Made by a program: the position numbers and the translations under genes. Below, one piece after another: positions 17,884-39,331 of a stretch of 45,568 nt of DNA. Source of the DNA: Candidatus Rifleibacteriota bacterium (GTDB lineage: Bacteria; Muiribacteriota; Ozemobacteria; Ozemobacterales; Ozemobacteraceae); NCBI GenBank assembly GCA_012517355.1, contig JAAYVD010000051.1, positions 1 through 45,568 of the forward strand, given 5' to 3'. A model generated the notes under the pieces. The model made no database searches. It saw nothing but the letters and a program-made list of their open reading frames with translations, and was not told the DNA's origin. Within the stretch, counting starts at the first letter, position 1. Each line of letters starts with the position of its first letter.

Positions 17884-20361
17884 TCAGGAGGGGGAGGGGC
17901 AACCTTTCTCGGGACCGTTCCTGGCCACTATCACCACGGTGAAATCGTCGGGCTGGGCCCCGCCCGCCTGGATGAACGGATGCTGGGCGAGGATGTCGTC
18001 GCAGGCTTCGGCCACCGGAAGAACCGGTCGCCCGGCGAGAAACCCGACGAACCGGGAAAACGAGGTGGTCCCTGGGGGCCGGTCCAGGGTTTCCAGCGAC
18101 TCGACCAGGCCGTCGGTGTAGAGGATGAGCCGGTCACCGGAACGCAAGGGGATCGGCAGGCGGGAAAACCGCATCCTGGCGCTCGTTCCCAAGGGCTTGC
18201 CGCAGGATCCCGACGGGACCGGATGGATCCCGGTCTGGCCGTCCGCGGTTCGGAGGATGGGGTGGACATGGCCGCAGTGGTAGAGGCCGACGGTCCCGTC
18301 CGGCAGGTCGAGATGGAGGAGGAGGGCGGTGGCCATGATCCTCTGCGAGGGACTCTGCCGCAACGCCCGGTTGATGTCCTCGATCAGGGTGTCCATGGCG
18401 AATGAATCGCGGGGATGATGGGCGACGGTGGTCTTGATGATCGCCATCCCCAGCGCTGCGGGCACTCCATGACCCATGACATCGGCGATCATCACGAACC
18501 CCGACTTGCCGTCGATCGGGAAATAGTCGAAGGAATCGCCGCCCAGCTGCGTGGCGGGGCGCGAACGCCCGCACACCTCGAAATCGCCCATCACCAGGGG
18601 CCCCGAGGGCAGGAGGGCGGCCTGGACGGCCTGGGCGGAGCTGATCTCGCGGGCCATCTCGAACAGGCGGGCATTTTCCAGGGCTGTGCCCAGAAGGCCG
18701 GCCAGGGTGGACCAGAAGCCTGGTGAGAACGGCCGTTCCCCGACGTTCGGGGCCCTCCGGAAACAGATGCCGCCCCATTCACGGTTCCCGGTGGACAACG
18801 GCAGAAACGCGGCAAATCCCAGGCTGTCCGGATCGGTGACCCGCTTGATCTCGCCGGGAAGGTCATTCAGGTAGGCCAACTGGCTCCGTTCCAGCGCGGC
18901 GGACAGGTGGGCCGGCCCTTCGAACCCCTGTCGGGCAAGAACGGCGACCTGGTCGCCTTCCGGACGGAAAAACACCAGCAGGAGGTCCGCCGTTCCGCTC
19001 AACCGCCCGAGGTCGGCCAGGGCCGTCCGGGACAACTGCCCCAGATCGAGCATGGCCGGATAGGTTTCCCCCGCTTGGTTGAGGATGGACAACTCCCGCA
19101 CCCGATCGCTCAATTGCTCGTTCCGGTCCTGCAGGTCGATGTTCGCTCGCTTCAGATTCTTGTACAATTGCATCAACCGTGTCACGACATATTGGACAAT
19201 GCTGGTCACGACTGGCGCCGCCAGGGGAAGGACCAGCCGGCCGAAGGTGAACAGGAGGAACGCGGCCGCCAGATAGACCCCCACCACCCCGAGGAAGAGG
19301 ACGGTTGTCCAGCCCAGTGTTCCCGGCAGGCACAGCAAAACCCCGGTCACCAGGGACAAGCCGAGGACGATCCCGGCCTTGGCCGGCCAGCCGGGCTCGG
19401 CCAGGATTTCCCCATCGAGCAGGTTGCGCAGGAGCGCGGCATGGACCATGACCCCGGGCGATACCCCGTAGGGCGTGAGCCGCATGTCGCCGAGTCCGAC
19501 CGCGCCCAGCCCGATCAGGACGATCCGGTTCCGGAAGGCGGCCGGGGGAACTTCGCCGGCCAGGAGGTCGGCGAAGGGATACACGGCGAAACTGGTCGAC
19601 CCCAGGCCGGCGGGCCGGGGAAAGTCGATGAGAACCGCCTGGCTGTTCGAGGGTTGCCAGGCCCCCGGGGCATGGGCCAGCGGGGGGACCGAGCAGAACG
19701 GAACCCGGTTCCCGTCGATCGACAGCTGGTCCCCTGTCCAGATGAGACCCTCCCCGGCCCGCCAAGCCTGCCTGATGGCCAGCGGGAACCCGGGGTGGAG
19801 TCGGTCGCTCCAGCGATGGAACAGGAAGTTCCGGCGGATGATCCCGTCGGGATTGATCTGGGCGAAGTCCACGTTGATGAACCCGATCCCCGCGGCGACG
19901 GAGGCCAGCGAGGGCAGGGGCATCTGGCGTTCCTCCCGGGCGAATGATTCGTGGGTCACCGGGTCGTACAGGCGGAGTTCCCGAAAGACACTGGGCCACA
20001 CCACCCGGCCAAAGTGTTGGCACGCCTCCACCAGCAAAACGTCGCCCTGGGGGTCGGTGGCGGAGGGGGAATCGATGAGCAGATCGAAGGCGATGAGCCG
20101 CGCGCCCGCCGATGCCAGCGAAGCAACCGCCTCGGCATACCGGCGTCGTGAGATGGGCCACTCGCCGAGGCGTTCGAGGCAGTCGTCCGTGATAGTGACG
20201 ACCACGATCCGGTCATCGACGGGGGCGGCGGAACGGGTGGCGAAGCGCCAATCGATCGTCCGGGCCTCGAGGTGTTCCCAGACGCCCGTCAGTTGTCCCG
20301 CGATGGCCAGCAGGGCGATTCCCAGGGCCGTCAGTCCTTCGAGCCAGGGGAACGACCTCAT
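17884..20361 (-). CDS. CHASE2-domain receptor with GAF-like region and PP2C/SpoIIE phosphatase
   Basis: 825 residues. One transmembrane segment (about 8-24) precedes an extracytoplasmic CHASE2 sensor (about 30-315: DDRIVVVTITDDCLERLG, GARLIAFDLLID, GFINVDFAQINPDGIIRR, FRNRIVLIG, DMRLTPYG, PGVMVHAALLRNLLDG). Three more segments at about 330-400 lead to a helical linker (YKNLKRANIDLQDRNEQL) and a GAF-like region. The C-terminal 225 residues are a PPM/SpoIIE phosphatase with its metal and core motifs: QLGGDSFDYFPI, MIADVMGHGVPAALGMAI, YHCGHVHPIL, LILYTDGLVES and QPDDFTVVIV. It should dephosphorylate a Ser/Thr-phosphorylated STAS protein in response to an envelope signal. It begins 27 bases after the FecR lipoprotein gene, in the same operon. 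Confidence 0.92.
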   Translation of the reverse strand: MRSFPWLEGLTALGIALLAIAGQLTGVWEHLEARTIDWRFATRSAAPVDDRIVVVTITDDCLERLGEWPISRRRYAEAVASLASAGARLIAFDLLIDSPSATDPQGDVLLVEACQHFGRVVWPSVFRELRLYDPVTHESFAREERQMPLPSLASVAAGIGFINVDFAQINPDGIIRRNFLFHRWSDRLHPGFPLAIRQAWRAGEGLIWTGDQLSIDGNRVPFCSVPPLAHAPGAWQPSNSQAVLIDFPRPAGLGSTSFAVYPFADLLAGEVPPAAFRNRIVLIGLGAVGLGDMRLTPYGVSPGVMVHAALLRNLLDGEILAEPGWPAKAGIVLGLSLVTGVLLCLPGTLGWTTVLFLGVVGVYLAAAFLLFTFGRLVLPLAAPVVTSIVQYVVTRLMQLYKNLKRANIDLQDRNEQLSDRVRELSILNQAGETYPAMLDLGQLSRTALADLGRLSGTADLLLVFFRPEGDQVAVLARQGFEGPAHLSAALERSQLAYLNDLPGEIKRVTDPDSLGFAAFLPLSTGNREWGGICFRRAPNVGERPFSPGFWSTLAGLLGTALENARLFEMAREISSAQAVQAALLPSGPLVMGDFEVCGRSRPATQLGGDSFDYFPIDGKSGFVMIADVMGHGVPAALGMAIIKTTVAHHPRDSFAMDTLIEDINRALRQSPSQRIMATALLLHLDLPDGTVGLYHCGHVHPILRTADGQTGIHPVPSGSCGKPLGTSARMRFSRLPIPLRSGDRLILYTDGLVESLETLDRPPGTTSFSRFVGFLAGRPVLPVAEACDDILAQHPFIQAGGAQPDDFTVVIVARNGPEKGCPSPS

Positions 20362-27267: not shown

Positions 27268-28200
27268 TCATTGGTCCTTGACGATCTCGATCCGGGAAAT
27301 CCTGCCCATTCCAGGGTCGGCCTCGGCCAACGCCAAGGGCTGGGTCGCCCCGTGCCCGACCGCCTGCAGGCGGGGCGCGGGGATCCCGAACTTGACCAGC
27401 CAGTCCTTGATTGCCTGGGCACGTTCCAGGGACAGCCGTTGGGCCGCCTCGGCGCCGGCGGCGGCTTCGGCGTGGCCATGGATGGCCAGCCGCAAGCCGG
27501 GGCGATCGAACAGCAGTTCCAGGAGGCGGTAGAGGAAGGGCTTCGCTCTCGGTCCCAGGGTGGCCTGATCGGCAGGGAAAGGCACGAAGAGGACCACCCG
27601 GCGCTCGGCCTCCAGCCGTGCGCCCAGGGCGGAGGGGCCCGGCCGTGGGGGGGCCAGGGGATCGTCCCTTCCCCCCGGGGCCACGGTTGCCGGTGCCGCC
27701 GGGGCGACGGGCTTGCCGGCCAGGCCCCGGGGAGCTTTCCGCAGGCTGGCCACCAGGCGCGGATGATGGATAGCGGCTACCTCGCGGGAAATCTGCCGGA
27801 AGGGGTCCTGGTTTTGTCGCTGGCGTTCCGCGGCCCGTCGCAGGACGGTGGCCAGGGGGACTCCCGGGGCGCTTCCCAGGCGAAACGCCCGGCAACCCCG
27901 CCCCACCAGGTTGAGATAGGAGATCTCGTCGATCCCGCCGGGCCGTTCCGGCGGTCCGAGCACGTAGACGTCGGCGCCGTCGGGAACCTGTTCGGGGCGG
28001 ATGACGAATCTTCCGGCCAACCCAGCCTGGCGAGCGACTTCCGCATCCTGGCCGACTCCGAGGATGAATGGCCCGGCCCCCTGGGCAGAGCTGCTCCTCT
28101 CCACGGCCATCAGCCCAAGGAGCATAGCCACCAGGATACCCACCCGGATGCCCGAAGCTCGGGACTTTTTGAACGACCAGGCGACAGGGGCATGGCACAT
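27268..28200 (-). CDS. Exported protein with C-terminal OmpA-like domain, first gene of operon II
   Basis: 310 residues. The ATG at 28200 is fixed by AAGGAGG 10 bases upstream. A hydrophobic N-terminal segment (IRVGILVAMLLGLMAV) precedes a middle region of unknown fold (FVIRPEQVPDGADVYVLG, FRQISREVAAIHHPRLVAS). The last 120 residues resemble an OmpA C-terminal domain: VVLFVPFPADQATLGPRAK, LRLAIHGHAEAAAGAE, QRLSLERAQAIKDWLVKFGI, RLQAVGHGATQPLA. The usual peptidoglycan-binding Asp and Arg positions are only partly recognisable (LSLERAQ, RISRIEIV), so wall binding is not assured. In this operon it may tie the pseudopilus machinery to the wall. Confidence 0.8.
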   Translation of the reverse strand: MCHAPVAWSFKKSRASGIRVGILVAMLLGLMAVERSSSAQGAGPFILGVGQDAEVARQAGLAGRFVIRPEQVPDGADVYVLGPPERPGGIDEISYLNLVGRGCRAFRLGSAPGVPLATVLRRAAERQRQNQDPFRQISREVAAIHHPRLVASLRKAPRGLAGKPVAPAAPATVAPGGRDDPLAPPRPGPSALGARLEAERRVVLFVPFPADQATLGPRAKPFLYRLLELLFDRPGLRLAIHGHAEAAAGAEAAQRLSLERAQAIKDWLVKFGIPAPRLQAVGHGATQPLALAEADPGMGRISRIEIVKDQ

Positions 28201-28269
28201 TTCCCGGTTTCCTCCTTCCGAGGCTTCTTCCCTTCCAAAACACAGGGGGCCAGGATTCAGGACGGTGGC

Positions 28270-28299
28270 AGTATACCCGAGGGCGAGGGAGGAATCCAA
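28270..28299 (-). promoter_or_regulatory. Promoter of pseudopilin operon II
   Basis: On the minus strand: TTGGAT (28299-28294), an 18-base spacer, then TATACT (28275-28270). Transcription near 28263 gives a leader of about 63 bases. Five genes down to the ECF sigma gene at 23454 should be on this message. Confidence 0.55.
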
Positions 28300-28474
28300 C
28301 GCGGGCTGGAGCGGAACCATCCGCGCGGTGGACGGTCGTCGCGGGATGGCCGCGGGCCCGGAGCCTGATCCAAAACAAGGTTCGCCCATCTCCCCTGGAT
28401 GGTTACAGATCTCTTCTCTCACCGGGAGGCATCATCCCTTCTATGGGTCCAGGATTCGCCGACCAGGGAGGAAG

Positions 28475-28503: not shown

Positions 28504-28563
28504 TGGGGAGAGGTGGTGATCGGATTGAGAGAGAAGAGGAACGTCCACCGGCCGGGCTGGACA

Positions 28564-28989
28564 ATGCCAGGGTCCCACCGCGGGCGGCGGCCCGGCCAGG
28601 ATAGGAAGACCCAGACCCGGGGGGCCCCCGACCCCCGGCTGATCGACGGCGAGGATTTCCCGGCGCGGCTCTTCTGTGCGCGTTGCCATGCCTTCATCAC
28701 CGCCACCGCGCACCAGATGGAGATGAACGGCCGCCATCGCCACGTCTTCGACAATCCCGTGGGGCTCATCTTCGAGATCGGGTGTTTCCGCGAAGCCCCC
28801 GGGTGCCAGGTGGACGGCGACCCGCCCACGCTGGAGTTCACCTGGTTTCCCGGGTTCGGCTGGCAGATCTGCTGGTGCCGGGGGTGCCTGGAGCACGTCG
28901 GCTGGAAGTTCACGGGCGGGGAGCCGGCCTCTTTCTTCGGGCTGATCCTCGACAAGCTGGTGCGCGAAAAGTCCCCTGACCCGTCCTGA
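28564..28989 (+). CDS. Bacterial cereblon-like CULT-domain protein
   Basis: 141 residues from the ATG at 28564. GTG at 28516 is an alternative that would add 16 residues. The protein is essentially one CULT domain, the ligand-binding domain of eukaryotic cereblon. Zinc ligands are C38-x2-C41 (CARC) and C105-x2-C108 (CRGC). The aromatic cage is W94 and W100 in TWFPGFGW, and W114 with F116 in HVGWKF. These correspond to human W380, W386, W400 and F402 (WFPGYAW, HIGWKF). N64 (FDNPVG) fits the conserved Asn. The end, ASFFGLILDKL, is also typical. Small bacterial CULT proteins such as that of Magnetospirillum bind uridine and thalidomide-type imides in vitro; the natural ligand is unknown. No Lon-like domain is attached. 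Confidence 0.92.
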   Translation: MPGSHRGRRPGQDRKTQTRGAPDPRLIDGEDFPARLFCARCHAFITATAHQMEMNGRHRHVFDNPVGLIFEIGCFREAPGCQVDGDPPTLEFTWFPGFGWQICWCRGCLEHVGWKFTGGEPASFFGLILDKLVREKSPDPS

Positions 28990-29075: not shown

Positions 29076-29618
29076 ATGCCCTTGTGGGATGAGGACCGGA
29101 TCCCTTTCACCCAGGAGAAGTTCGCTGCTGCGCTCGAACGGTGCCGGACCGGCGGTGTCTCCACCGGTCTGCGGTCGCTGCTGGAGACCCTCCATCAGGA
29201 CCGGATGCCCTGGCGGGAACTGCGGCCGGTGCTGGACCGGTTCCTGGAAGACCTCGCCAGGGGAGATCCCCGCCGGCGGAACGAGCTGTTCGACCTGGGG
29301 TTGCAGGAGATGCGGACCCTGGCCCGGCAGGCTCTGGGCGAGGCCGGGGATGCCCTCGACCGGCTGGTCGGCCCCGAACCTCGGCCCCATGCGGCCCAGA
29401 AGGTGGCCATCGCCCGGCTCACCTGGTTCCTGGCCATCTCCTCCCCGGACTTCCGGTTGGCGCACGAAGGCGACGACCGGTGGGCCATCCTCGAGAGATA
29501 TGGGGATGGATACGAGTTCCACGGGCTGGTGATCGTGAAGATGCCCGCCCCGACCGCCGGCGCCTGGACCTGGGGAGTGGTGCGGCAGCGGGAAACCCGT
29601 CTCTGGGAGGACTTTTGA
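29076..29618 (+). CDS. Unknown soluble protein downstream of the CULT gene
   Basis: 180 residues. The ATG at 29076 has AGGGAGG 7 bases upstream, better than an in-frame TTG at 29070. The sequence is charged, with no signal or membrane segment. The first 100 residues look helical (EKFAAALERCRTGGVSTGLR, LRPVLDRFLEDLARGDPRR). The rest looks mixed and is Trp-rich (TWFLAISSPDFRLAHEGDD, AWTWGVVRQRETRLWEDF). I do not recognise a family. It follows the CULT gene by 86 bases in the same direction. That gap contains CCGGCTCC and GGAGCCGG as a long-loop inverted repeat, which might end or attenuate the first transcript. Confidence 0.7.
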   Translation: MPLWDEDRIPFTQEKFAAALERCRTGGVSTGLRSLLETLHQDRMPWRELRPVLDRFLEDLARGDPRRRNELFDLGLQEMRTLARQALGEAGDALDRLVGPEPRPHAAQKVAIARLTWFLAISSPDFRLAHEGDDRWAILERYGDGYEFHGLVIVKMPAPTAGAWTWGVVRQRETRLWEDF

Positions 29619-29803: not shown

Positions 29804-29890
29804 GGGGCGGGAGGCCGGGTGCAGGGAAGGGCGGTTTCGGGGGTGGCTCGGAGCCGGTTCCCTGGGAATCTCCGGCCGGGAGGGTGTGCC

Positions 29891-32689
29891 ATGCCGCCGG
29901 TGTCTTCGGCCGACCTGTTCGCCAATCTGCAGCGGGCGTTCCAGCTCGACGACGCGCGCCTGATCACCGCCCTGCTCGACCGGGCGGGGGGCGTCGACGA
30001 CGAGCAGTTCCTGCTGTTTCTGCTCTACAAGGGCCTCGCCCATGCCGACGCCGAGGTTCAGCAGAAGAGCGCCACGCTCCTGCAGGACCACCTCGACCGG
30101 CTGGAGGAGCCGCTGAGGGCGCTGCTCAACCACCCGGCGGAAAACGTCCGGTTCTGGGCGCTGTCTCTGCTCGGCCATGCCGGCAAGGTTCCCGCCCCGG
30201 AGCTGGCCGAGGTGTTCAACCGCAACGAGAAGGACGAGACCAAGGTCCTGGCGGCCGACCTGCTGTTCGCGGGGGCGGAACGGCCGGAGACCCTCGAGCT
30301 GCTGATCCGGCACCTGGGCAACCCCAGCTGGGCGCTGCGCCGCCACCTGAACAAGAAGCTGCTGCCCCTCGGCGAGAAGCTGGTGCCGGCCATCCGCACC
30401 GTATTCGCCCGCGGGAACCTGCACGAGAAATACTGGGCGCTCAAGCTGTTGATAGATCTGTCGGGGCCGAAAGCGATGCGGCACATCCGGAAATTCCTGG
30501 CCACCAAGGACCCCACGGTCAAGCTGTACGCGATCGCCGCGCTCGAGTTCGTCCCCGGTTCCGAGGCGCTGGGCTTTTTGTTCTCGGCGCTGCAGGAGGA
30601 TTCGCCCGTCATGCGCTACCAGGCCGCGCGCGTCTTCGCCGGCAAGGGGGAAGACGCGCTGCGCGAGGCGGTGCGGCTCATCGGCGAGAAGGGGCCGGAA
30701 CTGAAGGACGAGCTGAACATCCTGACCGGGCGGATCCTCGGGGCGCGCAGCCGGCAGTATTTCCAGCCGCAGCTGGCCAGCGCCGATCCCGACGACCGCT
30801 TCTACGCCCTGCGGGCCATCGGGCAGGACCCCGACCTCGAGGGGGTGCGGCTGCTGGTGCGGGCCTTCCGCGACCCGGTCTGGATCATCCGGCGGCTCGC
30901 CTCGGACCTGCTGTCGAACCACATCCCTCTGGCCCGTGAGGAGCTGATCGCCGCCCTCAACGACCCATCCTACGACACCATCTTCTGGGCGACCAAGACG
31001 CTGGGGGCGGGGAAGGACCCGGCCGCCTCGCGGCCGCTGCTGACGCTGGTCGACCACCATCCGAACCCGAACGTGCGGGTGTGCGCGGTAAAGGCGCTGT
31101 GCGAGCTCGACATCGAGTATGTGGCCGAGCTGCTGATCCTCAATTTCCGCGACGCCCCGCTGTCGGTGCGGACGGCGATCGCCGAGGGGCTGGCCCGGAT
31201 GAGCCGGCTGAAGGTGCTGAAATACCTGGTGATCTACCTGTTCGACCGCGACAAGTCGGTCTCGTTCTGGTGCGAGAAGACCCTCAAGACCCTGCAATAT
31301 CCCGCCCTGTCGAGCCTGCTGGGCCTGCTGGTGACGCTCGACGCGGTGCAGCAGGAGAAGTTCATCTCCTACCTGCACCACCTCAAACCGGAACAGCTGC
31401 ACCAGATCCTGCAGCGCGAGAAGGTGACGCTGGCCGACTTCGACCCCGACCAGCTGCCGCCGGAGGAATACGTGCTGGTGCCGCTGGCGCAGTATCGCAC
31501 CCTCGACGACCTGCTGGCGCAGCTGAAGGAACAGAAGGGCTCCGACCTGCACCTCAACGTCGGCCTGCCGCCCATGTTCCGCGTGCACGGCGACCTGACG
31601 CGCACCAACCTTCCCCCCCTCACCGAGGAGCGGGTCTCGCAGCTCATCCTGTCGATCTTCAACGAGGAGCAGCTGGCGCGGTTCAAGGAACGGTGGGAGA
31701 TCGACTTCTCCTACGAGGTGAAGCACGTCGGCCGGTTCCGGGCCAACATCTTCCGGCAGCGGCAGGGCATCAGCGGGGTGTTCCGGCTGATCCCGACGCA
31801 GATCCCGACCTTCGAGGAACTGGGGCTGCAGCGGCCGGTCTTCGAGGCGTTGTGCGAGAACCGCAACGGGCTGATCCTGGTCACCGGGCCGACCGGCTCG
31901 GGAAAGTCGACCACCATGGCGGTGATGGTCGACTACATCAACAAGTCCCGGCACGAGCACATCCTGACCATCGAGGATCCCATCGAGTTCGTGCACCAAC
32001 ACAAGCGGTGCAGCATCAACCAGCGCGAGCTGGGCACCCACACGCATTCGTTCGCCGACGCCCTGCGCTCTTCGCTGCGTGAGGACCCGGACGTCATCCT
32101 GGTCGGCGAGATGCGCGACCCCGAAACGATCAAGCTGGCGCTGACCGCCTCGGAGACCGGCCACCTGGTCTTCTCGACGCTGCACACCATCAATGCCAGC
32201 GAGAGCATCAACCGCATCATCGGGGCCTTCCCCGCCGACCACCAGGACCAGGTGCGCCTCGAGCTGGCGGGGGTGTTGCGGGCCATCGTCTCGCAGAAGC
32301 TGCTGCCGCGGTGTGACCGGCGCGGCCGGGTGCTGGCCTACGAGATGCTGGTGGTCAACATCGCGGTGCGGAACCTGATGAAGGAGGCCAAGACCGAGCA
32401 GATCCTGTCGATCATGCAGACGGCGGCCGGCGAGCACATGCAGACCATGGACCAGGCGCTGGCCCGGCTGGCGGTCAACGAGATCTGCAGCGTGGAAGCG
32501 GTCATGCCGCACGTGGTCGACAAGAAGTCGTTCGCCCAGTTGATGCAGGGAATGGCCCCCAAGCCGGTGCCCGGGGGCAAGGCCGCCGCCGCGCCCGTCG
32601 GCAAGCCTGCCCCGGGGCCGGGGCGGGAGGTGGGGGCCGGCCCGGCGGGTCCGGGGCCGGCTGCGCCGAAACGGCCGGTGAAGGGATGA
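29891..32689 (+). CDS. pilT: HEAT-repeat/PilT fusion: type IV pilus retraction ATPase
   Basis: 932 residues. Residues 1 to about 530 are HEAT-like repeats (LRALLNHPAENVRFWALSLL, ETLELLIRHLGNPSWALRR, ALREAVRLIGEKG, VRVCAVKALCELDIEYVAEL). Residues from about 550 to 890 are a complete PilT. DLLAQLKEQKGSDLHLNVG is the N-terminal PAS-like part. GPTGSGKSTT (about 666-675) is the Walker A. HILTIEDPIEFVH, VILVGEMRDPETI (Walker B) and GHLVFSTLHT (His box) follow. VNIAVRNLMKEAKTEQI is the C-terminal PilT-specific motif. The tail is Pro/Ala-rich. PilT usually has about 350 residues, so the 530-residue repeat domain is the oddity. GGGAGGG lies 6 bases before the ATG at 29891. PilT drives pilus retraction from the cytoplasmic face of the inner membrane. 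Confidence 0.92.
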   Translation: MPPVSSADLFANLQRAFQLDDARLITALLDRAGGVDDEQFLLFLLYKGLAHADAEVQQKSATLLQDHLDRLEEPLRALLNHPAENVRFWALSLLGHAGKVPAPELAEVFNRNEKDETKVLAADLLFAGAERPETLELLIRHLGNPSWALRRHLNKKLLPLGEKLVPAIRTVFARGNLHEKYWALKLLIDLSGPKAMRHIRKFLATKDPTVKLYAIAALEFVPGSEALGFLFSALQEDSPVMRYQAARVFAGKGEDALREAVRLIGEKGPELKDELNILTGRILGARSRQYFQPQLASADPDDRFYALRAIGQDPDLEGVRLLVRAFRDPVWIIRRLASDLLSNHIPLAREELIAALNDPSYDTIFWATKTLGAGKDPAASRPLLTLVDHHPNPNVRVCAVKALCELDIEYVAELLILNFRDAPLSVRTAIAEGLARMSRLKVLKYLVIYLFDRDKSVSFWCEKTLKTLQYPALSSLLGLLVTLDAVQQEKFISYLHHLKPEQLHQILQREKVTLADFDPDQLPPEEYVLVPLAQYRTLDDLLAQLKEQKGSDLHLNVGLPPMFRVHGDLTRTNLPPLTEERVSQLILSIFNEEQLARFKERWEIDFSYEVKHVGRFRANIFRQRQGISGVFRLIPTQIPTFEELGLQRPVFEALCENRNGLILVTGPTGSGKSTTMAVMVDYINKSRHEHILTIEDPIEFVHQHKRCSINQRELGTHTHSFADALRSSLREDPDVILVGEMRDPETIKLALTASETGHLVFSTLHTINASESINRIIGAFPADHQDQVRLELAGVLRAIVSQKLLPRCDRRGRVLAYEMLVVNIAVRNLMKEAKTEQILSIMQTAAGEHMQTMDQALARLAVNEICSVEAVMPHVVDKKSFAQLMQGMAPKPVPGGKAAAAPVGKPAPGPGREVGAGPAGPGPAAPKRPVKG

Positions 32690-34497: not shown

Positions 34498-35469
34498 ATG
34501 ATGGGGCGTCATCGGGCATGGCTGGTGGGCGCGGTGGTTCTGTTCCTGGCCTGGGCGGGTTCCGGGTCGGCCGAGCCGCCGCTGAAGGTCACGGGGGTGA
34601 AGCCGGGGGAGCCGTTCCCCCTCACCGACGACAAGGTTCGTGGCCTGGTCGAGAGCCTGGCCTCGTTCCGCGGCGGGCCCGAGCGGGCGGGCGAGAAGAT
34701 GCTGTCGGAGGTGTTCGGCCTGAAGGGGGCCGAGGCCACCCGCACCTATCCGTTCGGGGAGTTCGCCCACATGGGGGAGTCGCTCAACGGCGGGTTCCCC
34801 GACCTGACGGTGCATCTCGCCGCCGGCTTCGGTCCCACCAACCTGCTGGCGGGGCTTCTCGACAAGGGCTTCTCGGCCCTCGCCCCCGGGCGATGGTGGG
34901 AATCGCCCCTGCACTGGGCGGCGCTGCGTGGCCGCACCGACAACGTCCGGTTGTTGTTGCAGCGGGGGGCCCGCCTCAACGCCCGCGACAGCTGGGACCG
35001 CACCGCCCTGCACTGCGCCGCCCGCGGCGGGCATGCCGAAACGGTCGAGGCGCTCCTCGACGCGGGGGCCGACCCCCGGTCGGTCAACCGTGAGGGGCAG
35101 ACCCCCCTGCACATGGCCGCGGTGCGCGGCTGGTGCGAAGTCATCCGGCGGTTGCTGGCCACGCGCATGGATGTCGACATCCGCAACGGCGCCTGGCTGA
35201 CCCCGCTGCACGAGGCGGCGGCGGGTGGCCACGCCGATGCGGTCCGGTTGCTGCTCAACGCCCGGGCCAACCCCAACGCGGCCGATCAGGTCGGGCGCAC
35301 CCCGCTCCACCTGGCCGTCCTGCTCGACCGGCTCGACGCGGTCGAAGTGCTGCTGTCGTTCGGGGCCGACACCTTCCGCAAGGACCACCAGGGGGTCGAT
35401 CCCTACCAGGTGGCCGAGAAGACCGGCAGCGTGCCGATGCAGCGGCTGCTGGTCGACCGCCACCGGTGA
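34498..35469 (+). CDS. Exported ankyrin-repeat protein
   Basis: 323 residues. The first of two adjacent ATG codons (34498) is preceded by GAGGTGATCC, a strong match to the 16S rRNA end. A signal peptide ([18 protein letters not shown]) precedes about 100 residues of unknown fold. At least five ankyrin repeats then run to the end ([100 protein letters not shown]). The repeats match the consensus more closely than those at 4304-5332. The target is unknown; location is probably periplasmic. recQ follows after 13 bases. Confidence 0.88.
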
Positions 35470-38131: not shown

Positions 38132-39331
38132 ATGAATCTCGAAATAAAAGAACCCCGCTTTGGCCTGGACCGGGTTGCTGCGATGATGGACGCCTTGGCG
38201 GACCCTTCGCGCCTGGTCATCCTGCAGTCCCTGCTCGAGGGTCCGCGGTGCGTCGAGGAGCTGGCGGGGCGGTTGGCCCTGGCCGCCTCGACGGTCTCCT
38301 TCCATCTGAAAAAGCTGGAAAAGGCGGGCCTGGTGTCCAGGACGCGCGCGCAGTACTACGCCGTCTACGCGGTTCGGACCGACGATCTCGACTGGACCCT
38401 GCGCGACCTGCTGTCCTTCGAGGATCCCGAGCGGAAGGCGCGGGCGGCGCGCGCGGCCCGGATGCGGGAGCAGGTGCGGCGGGCTTTCCTGCGCGGCGGG
38501 CGGCTGGTGCAGATGCCCGTGCAGCAGCAGAAGCGCCGGATCCTCCTGGAGGAGATGGCGGCCGTCTTCCCGGCCGGGGTGCCGATTCCCGAGAAGGAGG
38601 TGGACGCCCTCCTGCACCGATTCCACGAGGACCACTGCCTGCTGCGGCGGCTCCTGGTCGACGAGGGGTTCCTCGGGCGGGCCGCCGGAACCTACTGGCT
38701 GATCCCCCGGACGGGCTCTCCGGGCCACGGGGTTCCGGCCGGTCCGATGATGCCGGGAGCCCCTCCGGCAACGAAGATCCCCAGGCCCTCTCCAGGGTGT
38801 GAGTCCGGGGATTCAGACACCGACACTGGCGGGCGCGAAGGAATGGCCGAGGTGGAGGCGACCGGCCTTGTCAGCGGTGGGCGACCAGGCCGACAGGAGG
38901 TCGGAAGGGCCTCTTCGCCCCGTTCATCACGGGTGCCTGATGCTTCCGCCCGCTCCGGGCGGCGAAAGGAGGCGACAGACATGGATCGCAAACGTGCCCT
39001 GAAACAGGCCTACAGGGAGATGGTCATTCCCGCCGGGGTGTTCCAGATCAGGAACCTGCGCAATGGCCGGATCCTGCTCGGCGGCTCGATGAACCTGAAC
39101 GCCGCGTTCAACAAGCACCGGCTGCAGTTGAACTGGGGCAAGCACCGCAACGCTGCCCTGCAGAAGGATTGGAACGAGTGCGGGGAAAGCGCCTTCGAGT
39201 TCACCATCCTGGAGACGATCACCCCGCCCGAAGACGGTCGGCAGATCACCCAGGACGACGTGCGCGACCGGGAGAAGCATTGGCTGAAGGAGCTGCAGCC
39301 CTACGGCGACAAGGGATACCACGAGCGCTGA
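38132..39331 (+). CDS. ArsR-type regulator with DUF2087, in frame with a GIY-YIG-family domain
   Basis: 399 codons without a stop. Residues 1-95 form an ArsR winged helix (ALADPSRLVILQSLLEG, STVSFHLKKLEKAGLVSRTR) without the usual metal-binding Cys pair. Residues 125-200 match DUF2087 (KRRILLEEMAAVF, EKEVDALLHRFHEDHCLLRR, GTYWLI). A low-complexity linker of about 85 residues leads to a GIY-YIG-family region (284-399: MDRKRALKQAYREM, GVFQIRNLRNGRILLGGSMN, HRNAALQKDWNECGE, LQPYGDKGYHER). The signature tyrosines are Phe and Leu here (GVF, LLG), so nuclease activity is doubtful. AAAGGAGG before codon 284 suggests that the last part is also, or only, made as a separate 116-residue protein. DUF2087 and GIY-YIG genes lie side by side in Firmicutes as I recall. 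Confidence 0.8.
   Translation: MNLEIKEPRFGLDRVAAMMDALADPSRLVILQSLLEGPRCVEELAGRLALAASTVSFHLKKLEKAGLVSRTRAQYYAVYAVRTDDLDWTLRDLLSFEDPERKARAARAARMREQVRRAFLRGGRLVQMPVQQQKRRILLEEMAAVFPAGVPIPEKEVDALLHRFHEDHCLLRRLLVDEGFLGRAAGTYWLIPRTGSPGHGVPAGPMMPGAPPATKIPRPSPGCESGDSDTDTGGREGMAEVEATGLVSGGRPGRQEVGRASSPRSSRVPDASARSGRRKEATDMDRKRALKQAYREMVIPAGVFQIRNLRNGRILLGGSMNLNAAFNKHRLQLNWGKHRNAALQKDWNECGESAFEFTILETITPPEDGRQITQDDVRDREKHWLKELQPYGDKGYHER
38965..38983 (+). promoter_or_regulatory. Internal ribosome site and ATG for the GIY-YIG part
   Basis: AAAGGAGG (38965-38972), 8 bases, ATG (38981-38983). It is as good as any ribosome site in the window, inside an open frame that continues from the ArsR-DUF2087 part. 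A separate GIY-YIG-family protein of 116 residues (38981-39331) is therefore likely. Confidence 0.7.

What the first reader, a model, noticed from the sequence alone, without database searches (positions are those of the whole stretch)
28516..28989. Stand-alone bacterial cereblon (CULT) protein with an intact ligand cage
All the diagnostic positions of the thalidomide/uridine-binding domain are visible: two CxxC zinc pairs, TWFPGFGW, HVGWKF, and the Asn of FDNPVG. The protein has no Lon-like or other partner domain. It has its own promoter (TTGCCT-17-TACCCT) and sits beside an unknown gene at 29076. The physiological ligand of bacterial CULT proteins is unknown, so the neighbour gene is a candidate partner.
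Basis: partly seen in the sequence, partly recalled or inferred. Interest (0 to 1): 0.72.

Follow-up and report, generated by a model that had tools for sequence, protein, structure and literature searches.

The report
Bacterial thalidomide-binding (cereblon-like) protein
A small bacterial protein that is the free-standing version of the part of human cereblon that binds thalidomide, with every pocket residue kept; it is a clear new member of a known family whose job in bacteria is still unknown, and comparing its relatives revealed a conserved short tail motif in the family that may be a clue.

Summary
The gene is real and correctly recognised. The protein at 28516-28989 matches the solved Magnetospirillum CULT protein MsCI4 (E 5e-22) and human cereblon (E about 1e-11). 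Its AlphaFold model (pLDDT mostly above 90 over the domain) lies on ligand-bound MsCI4 at 0.9-1.5 A. All zinc and cage residues are present, and they are invariant in 81 bacterial relatives. It is a single-copy, single-domain bacterial CULT protein, a class described in 2015. It is rare in its own phylum (2 of 40 genomes).

The 'promoter' matches 7 of 12 consensus positions, and about 1.7 such sites per 300 bp occur by chance. The gene at 29076 is not a supported partner: it was found in no other relative, and CULT genes in 80 other species have no recurring neighbour.

One unexpected finding concerns the family. The N-terminal tails of bacterial CULT proteins carry a short hydrophobic-basic motif 31-36 residues before the first zinc Cys. 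It is well above shuffled controls and cross-validated across phyla. The window protein keeps only a degenerate version. The best mechanism is an imide reader for C-terminal cyclic imides or uracil-like rings, possibly working as an adaptor. The partner is unproven.

The parts
28516..28989 (+). CULT protein, 157 aa (GTG start; alternative ATG start at 28564, 141 aa)
   Evidence: ORF; phmmer to MsCI4 E 5.4e-22; single copy in a 7.1 Mb genome
28675..28686 (+). First zinc pair, C54-x-x-C57
   Evidence: Invariant in 81 of 81 sequences
28753..28758 (+). N80-P81, equivalent of human cereblon Asn351-Pro352 (hairpin tip by the pocket)
   Evidence: Invariant in 81 of 81
28834..28863 (+). E107-F108-T109-W110 ... 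W116: first two cage tryptophans and imide-contacting strand (human E377, H378, W380, W386)
   Evidence: E107, W110, W116 invariant in 81 of 81; MsCI4 equivalents Glu76, Phe77, Trp79, Trp85 line the imide pocket (PMC8900816)
28876..28887 (+). Second zinc pair, C121-x-x-C124
   Evidence: Invariant in 81 of 81
28903..28911 (+). W130-K-F132: third cage tryptophan and base-of-cage Phe, as in human (MsCI4 has Tyr101 here)
   Evidence: W130 invariant; position 132 is F in 44 and Y in 37 of 81
28516..28665 (+). Disordered Arg-rich N-terminal tail; holds only a degenerate copy of the family tail motif (SHRGRRPGQ, 34 residues before C54)
   Evidence: Block pLDDT 46-62; motif score no better than shuffles, p 0.14
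29076..29618 (+). Downstream neighbour, 180 aa, unknown; not a supported partner
   Evidence: No family; absent from 36 relatives
27268..28422 (-). Upstream divergent gene with C-terminal OmpA domain; context only
   Evidence: PF00691 E 1.4e-15; no match in the two congeners

Best explanation
[quoted passage not shown] The zinc-pinned beta-tent places W110, W116, W130 and F132 around a pocket that accepts a five- or six-membered cyclic imide or uracil-like ring, hydrogen-bonded by the backbone of F108 and W110, with N80, P81 and E107 lining the rim (inferred from homology to structures of MsCI4 and human cereblon). The most likely biological ligand is a C-terminal cyclic imide (aspartimide or glutarimide) on an aged or cleaved protein, as for eukaryotic cereblon. 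The protein would work as a stand-alone reader that holds such ends and, in most bacterial members, hands them on through a short motif in the N-terminal tail. Shown here: family, fold, intact pocket residues, lack of a genomic partner, and the tail motif in the family. Inferred: the ligand, the adaptor role, and any protease or repair partner.
For: Sequence match to MsCI4 and cereblon; model with block pLDDT 92-98 over residues 51-150, matching MsCI4-thalidomide, -deoxyuridine and other complexes at 0.9-1.5 A and TM up to 0.94; zinc and cage residues invariant in 81 of 81. Imide contacts known for the MsCI4 equivalents. C-terminal cyclic imides are the natural eukaryotic cereblon degron, made by protein ageing or by the isoaspartyl methyltransferase PCMT1 (PMC11974815). 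This genome has a PCMT-family gene and ClpX, although almost all bacteria do. Tail motif: log-likelihood 173.9 against a shuffled maximum of 130.6; learned on Desulfobacterota and Myxococcota it recurs at the same spacing in other phyla, score 10.6 against null -95 +/- 19.5, 0 of 1000.
Against: No ligand was tested. Uridine and deoxyuridine also bind MsCI4, so a nucleobase ligand is not excluded. PCMT and ClpX also occur in the congener without CULT. No conserved neighbour links CULT to a protease, chaperone or repair enzyme. The tail motif is degenerate in this protein (p 0.14). Pocket geometry was not measured directly; it was inferred from superposition and alignment.
Confidence: 0.5

Rival explanations
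1. A small-molecule sensor or buffer for uracil, uridine or related pyrimidines or imide metabolites, with no role in protein turnover.
For: MsCI4 binds uracil and uridine, and a deoxyuridine complex is among the closest fold matches. It could act as a ligand-folded switch: a third of MsCI4 folds only on ligand binding.
Against: No recurring pyrimidine-metabolism or regulator neighbours. The pocket holds the imide ring and leaves the rest of the ligand protruding, which suits a ring attached to something larger.
Confidence: 0.25
2. A partner-dependent protein whose partner is the adjacent 29076 gene.
For: Same strand, 86 bp downstream, could be co-transcribed.
Against: The 29076 protein is found in none of 36 relatives, including the congener that carries CULT. 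CULT loci in 80 species share no neighbour outside single genera, and in 21 of 73 both neighbours are on the opposite strand.
Confidence: 0.04
3. An enzyme rather than a reader: a hydrolase or reductase of cyclic imides, related to MsrB and GFA of the same beta-tent fold.
For: Beta-tent relatives include enzymes (PMC4287342).
Against: No catalytic residue set beyond the binding cage is known, and glutarimides sit intact in most MsCI4 crystals; a few MsCI4 entries contain hydrolysed ligand, which does not show catalysis.
Confidence: 0.08

Closest known systems
MsCI4 (MGR_0879, 'cereblon isoform 4', Magnetospirillum gryphiswaldense; PDB 4V2Y, 5AMH, 6R18)
   Same: Single-domain bacterial CULT, two CxxC pairs, three-Trp cage; about 40% identity; model at 0.9-1.5 A
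   Different: Base of the cage is Phe132 (human-like) instead of Tyr101; longer Arg-rich N-terminal tail
Human cereblon C-terminal thalidomide-binding domain (CULT)
   Same: Same fold and pocket residues (N351, P352, E377, W380, W386, W400, F402 equivalents)
   Different: No LON domain, no DDB1-binding region; position 378 is Phe instead of His
CULT protein of Candidatus Ozemobacter sibiricus BY5 (L003)
   Same: Closest relative, 54-58% identity over the domain; same genus-level group
   Different: Different neighbours (a CxxCxxCC zinc/iron-chelating-type gene downstream); Tyr at the cage base
Yippee/Mis18 (PF03226)
   Same: Same beta-tent superfamily; weak profile hit (14.4 bits)
   Different: Below Pfam's cut-off of 26.6

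Membership tests
CULT domain family (bacterial single-domain group of Lupas et al. 2015) | Significant sequence similarity to a solved CULT domain | tested here: met
   E 5.4e-22 to MsCI4; E about 1e-11 to cereblon TBD chains
CULT domain family (bacterial single-domain group of Lupas et al. 2015) | Two CxxC zinc pairs | tested here: met
   C54/C57 and C121/C124, invariant in 81 sequences; zinc itself not shown
CULT domain family (bacterial single-domain group of Lupas et al. 2015) | Three cage tryptophans in one pocket | tested here: met
   W110, W116, W130 align to Trp79/85/99 of MsCI4; model superposes at 0.9-1.5 A. Distances were not measured directly
CULT domain family (bacterial single-domain group of Lupas et al. 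2015) | Beta-tent fold | tested here: met
   AlphaFold model and Foldseek, TM up to 0.94 of target length
CULT domain family (bacterial single-domain group of Lupas et al. 2015) | No additional domain | tested here: met
   Only a disordered tail outside the domain
CULT domain family (bacterial single-domain group of Lupas et al. 2015) | Binds glutarimide or uridine | not testable with these tools
   Needs a binding assay
Cereblon proper (LON + CULT, E3 substrate receptor) | LON domain and DDB1-binding region | tested here: not met
   157 aa, no Pfam LON hit
Yippee/Mis18 (PF03226) | Score above Pfam gathering cut-off | tested here: not met
   14.4 bits against 26.6
Protease adaptor of the SspB kind (works-like only) | Folded reader plus flexible tail carrying a protease-docking motif | tested here: inconclusive
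   The family has a tail motif but it is degenerate in this protein, and no docking partner was tested

The most novel reading that the evidence does not exclude
Bacterial CULT proteins are ubiquitin-free counterparts of cereblon. A reader of C-terminal cyclic imides uses a conserved short motif ([LIYH]-[LFV]-[LF]-[RK]-x-P-x-[ED]-K, 31-36 residues before the first zinc Cys) on a flexible tail to deliver damaged proteins to a bacterial protease or repair enzyme, much as SspB delivers ssrA-tagged proteins to ClpX. The Ozemobacter-lineage proteins, including this one, have a diverged, Arg-rich version of the tail.
Probability: 0.12. Interest if true: 0.85.

Novelty: new member of a known kind. 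Interest (0 to 1): 0.38.

Why it matters
The thalidomide-binding pocket is conserved essentially residue for residue in bacteria that have no ubiquitin system, so it has a job outside ubiquitin-dependent degradation. This protein extends the family to another phylum, with a cage whose base matches the human one (Phe, not Tyr). The tail motif found here across the bacterial family gives a testable handle, other than ligand screening, on what bacterial CULT proteins dock to.

Tried and rejected
Neighbour as partner: rejected. Promoter claim: rejected as chance-level. Phage or plasmid cargo: no match in phages, plasmids or viral contigs. Defence system: no PADLOC or PHROG hit for the CULT protein. 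NCBIfam: no model matches. Origin by transfer: a tree of 81 domains (103 columns) does not resolve the placement of the window protein or join it with L003, so its origin stays open. An empty-site comparison failed: the OmpA-type flanking gene has no match in the two congeners and the HEAT-PilT gene only has 39%-identical paralogues or orthologues on other contigs.

Full report
Observation. It matches MsCI4, the solved single-domain CULT protein of Magnetospirillum, at E 5.4e-22, and cereblon chains at E 1e-10 to 1e-11. Pfam's nearest family, Yippee-Mis18, scores only 14.4 bits against a cut-off of 26.6, and no NCBIfam model matches, so standard annotation would miss it. It is single-copy in a 7.1 Mb, 184-contig genome.

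Residue numbering and start. Counted from GTG 28516, the cage tryptophans are W110, W116 and W130. GTG 28516 has a Shine-Dalgarno-like GGGGAGAGG just upstream and ATG 28564 does not, but relatives start anywhere from about 30 to 60 residues before the first zinc Cys, so the start stays open.

Structure. AlphaFold2 on an 81-sequence alignment gives block means of 92-98 for residues 51-150, and a disordered tail (46-62). Foldseek places it on MsCI4 complexes with thalidomide, deoxyuridine and other imides, at 0.9-1.5 A for the best of them and up to 0.94 TM of target length. C54, C57, C121, C124, N80, P81, E107, W110, F111, G113, W116, G129 and W130 are invariant in all 81. In MsCI4 the equivalents of F108, W110, W116, W130 and E107 line the imide pocket (PMC8900816). 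The base of the cage is F132, as in human cereblon; MsCI4 has Tyr, and the family is split 44 F to 37 Y. I could not measure pocket distances directly.

Distribution. Within the same phylum only 2 of 40 genomes have a convincing copy: this one and its congener Ca. Ozemobacter sibiricus BY5. The identity of that genome is inferred from the equal contig length of G001:C47 and QOQW01000008.1. A third hit at E 9e-4 is a fragment with stops. Elsewhere, 148 loci were confirmed; the 80 held are mostly Desulfobacterota, with Spirochaetes, alpha- and gamma-proteobacteria, Acidobacteria and Nitrospirae. There are none in phages, plasmids or viral contigs. A tree of the domain is too short to place the window protein.

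Genomic context. No gene recurs beside CULT outside single genera. In 73 loci with both neighbours known, 21 have both on the opposite strand, and the downstream neighbour is on the opposite strand in 43 and the same strand in 30. Pfam scanning of 123 immediate neighbours shows no shared theme beyond small lineage clusters. The 29076 gene was found in none of 36 relatives. CULT is therefore a free-standing gene, and the proposed partner has no support. Gene calls in these loci were made by a simple ORF-selection script, so single assignments may be wrong. The proposed promoter matches 7 of 12 positions; about 1.7 such sites occur per 300 bp by chance.

A tail motif in the family. [quoted passage not shown] In 53 non-redundant tails the expectation-maximisation fit has log-likelihood 173.9 against 119-131 in 12 shuffles. 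The best site falls mostly 31-36 residues before the first zinc Cys although position was not used in the fit. A model trained only on Desulfobacterota and Myxococcota-type tails scores 10.6 in 24 tails from other phyla, against -95 +/- 19.5 in shuffles (0 of 1000 as high), with a peak at 30-37 residues from the Cys. Individual sequences are often weak, so this is a family-level signal. The window protein scores no better than chance (SHRGRRPGQ, p 0.14) and its Ozemobacter sibling only weakly (GRWRRPLPG, p 0.02), so in this lineage the motif is diverged or lost. I found no mention of such a motif in the papers searched; most subscription papers are not held.

Mechanism. The pocket is almost certainly an imide/uracil-ring binder. 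In eukaryotes the natural ligand is a C-terminal cyclic imide formed by protein ageing or by PCMT1 (PMC11974815). This genome has a PCMT-family gene and ClpX, which is permissive but not discriminating. I favour a stand-alone reader of imide-ended proteins (0.5), with a pyrimidine or metabolite sensor as the main rival (0.25). The idea of an SspB-like adaptor (SspB's XB peptide docks on the ClpX zinc-binding domain, PMC12373786) rests on architecture only.

Verdict. The novelty lies in the family-wide tail motif, which needs a hold-out test and an experiment.

Noticed in passing
N-terminal tails of L004-L082: Conserved short hydrophobic-basic motif at near-constant distance before the first zinc Cys of bacterial CULT proteins.
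   Followed up: partly
29819-32689 (+): HEAT-repeat domain fused to a PilT-type ATPase (T2SSE); the two congeners have 39-48 matches to it each, counting HEAT-only and ATPase-only hits, so these families look strongly expanded in this genus.
   Followed up: no
38132-39331 (+): ArsR-type HTH followed by DUF2087 in one protein.
   Followed up: no
34498-35469 (+): Protein made almost wholly of ankyrin repeats.
   Followed up: no
17884-20361 (-): CHASE2 sensor fused to a SpoIIE-type phosphatase.
   Followed up: no
27268-28422 (-): OmpA-domain protein with no match in either congener despite a common C-terminal domain.
   Followed up: no
28909-28911 (position 132 of the CULT protein): Base of the cage is Phe or Tyr about equally across bacteria (44 to 37), and differs between the two Ozemobacter-lineage proteins.
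   Followed up: partly
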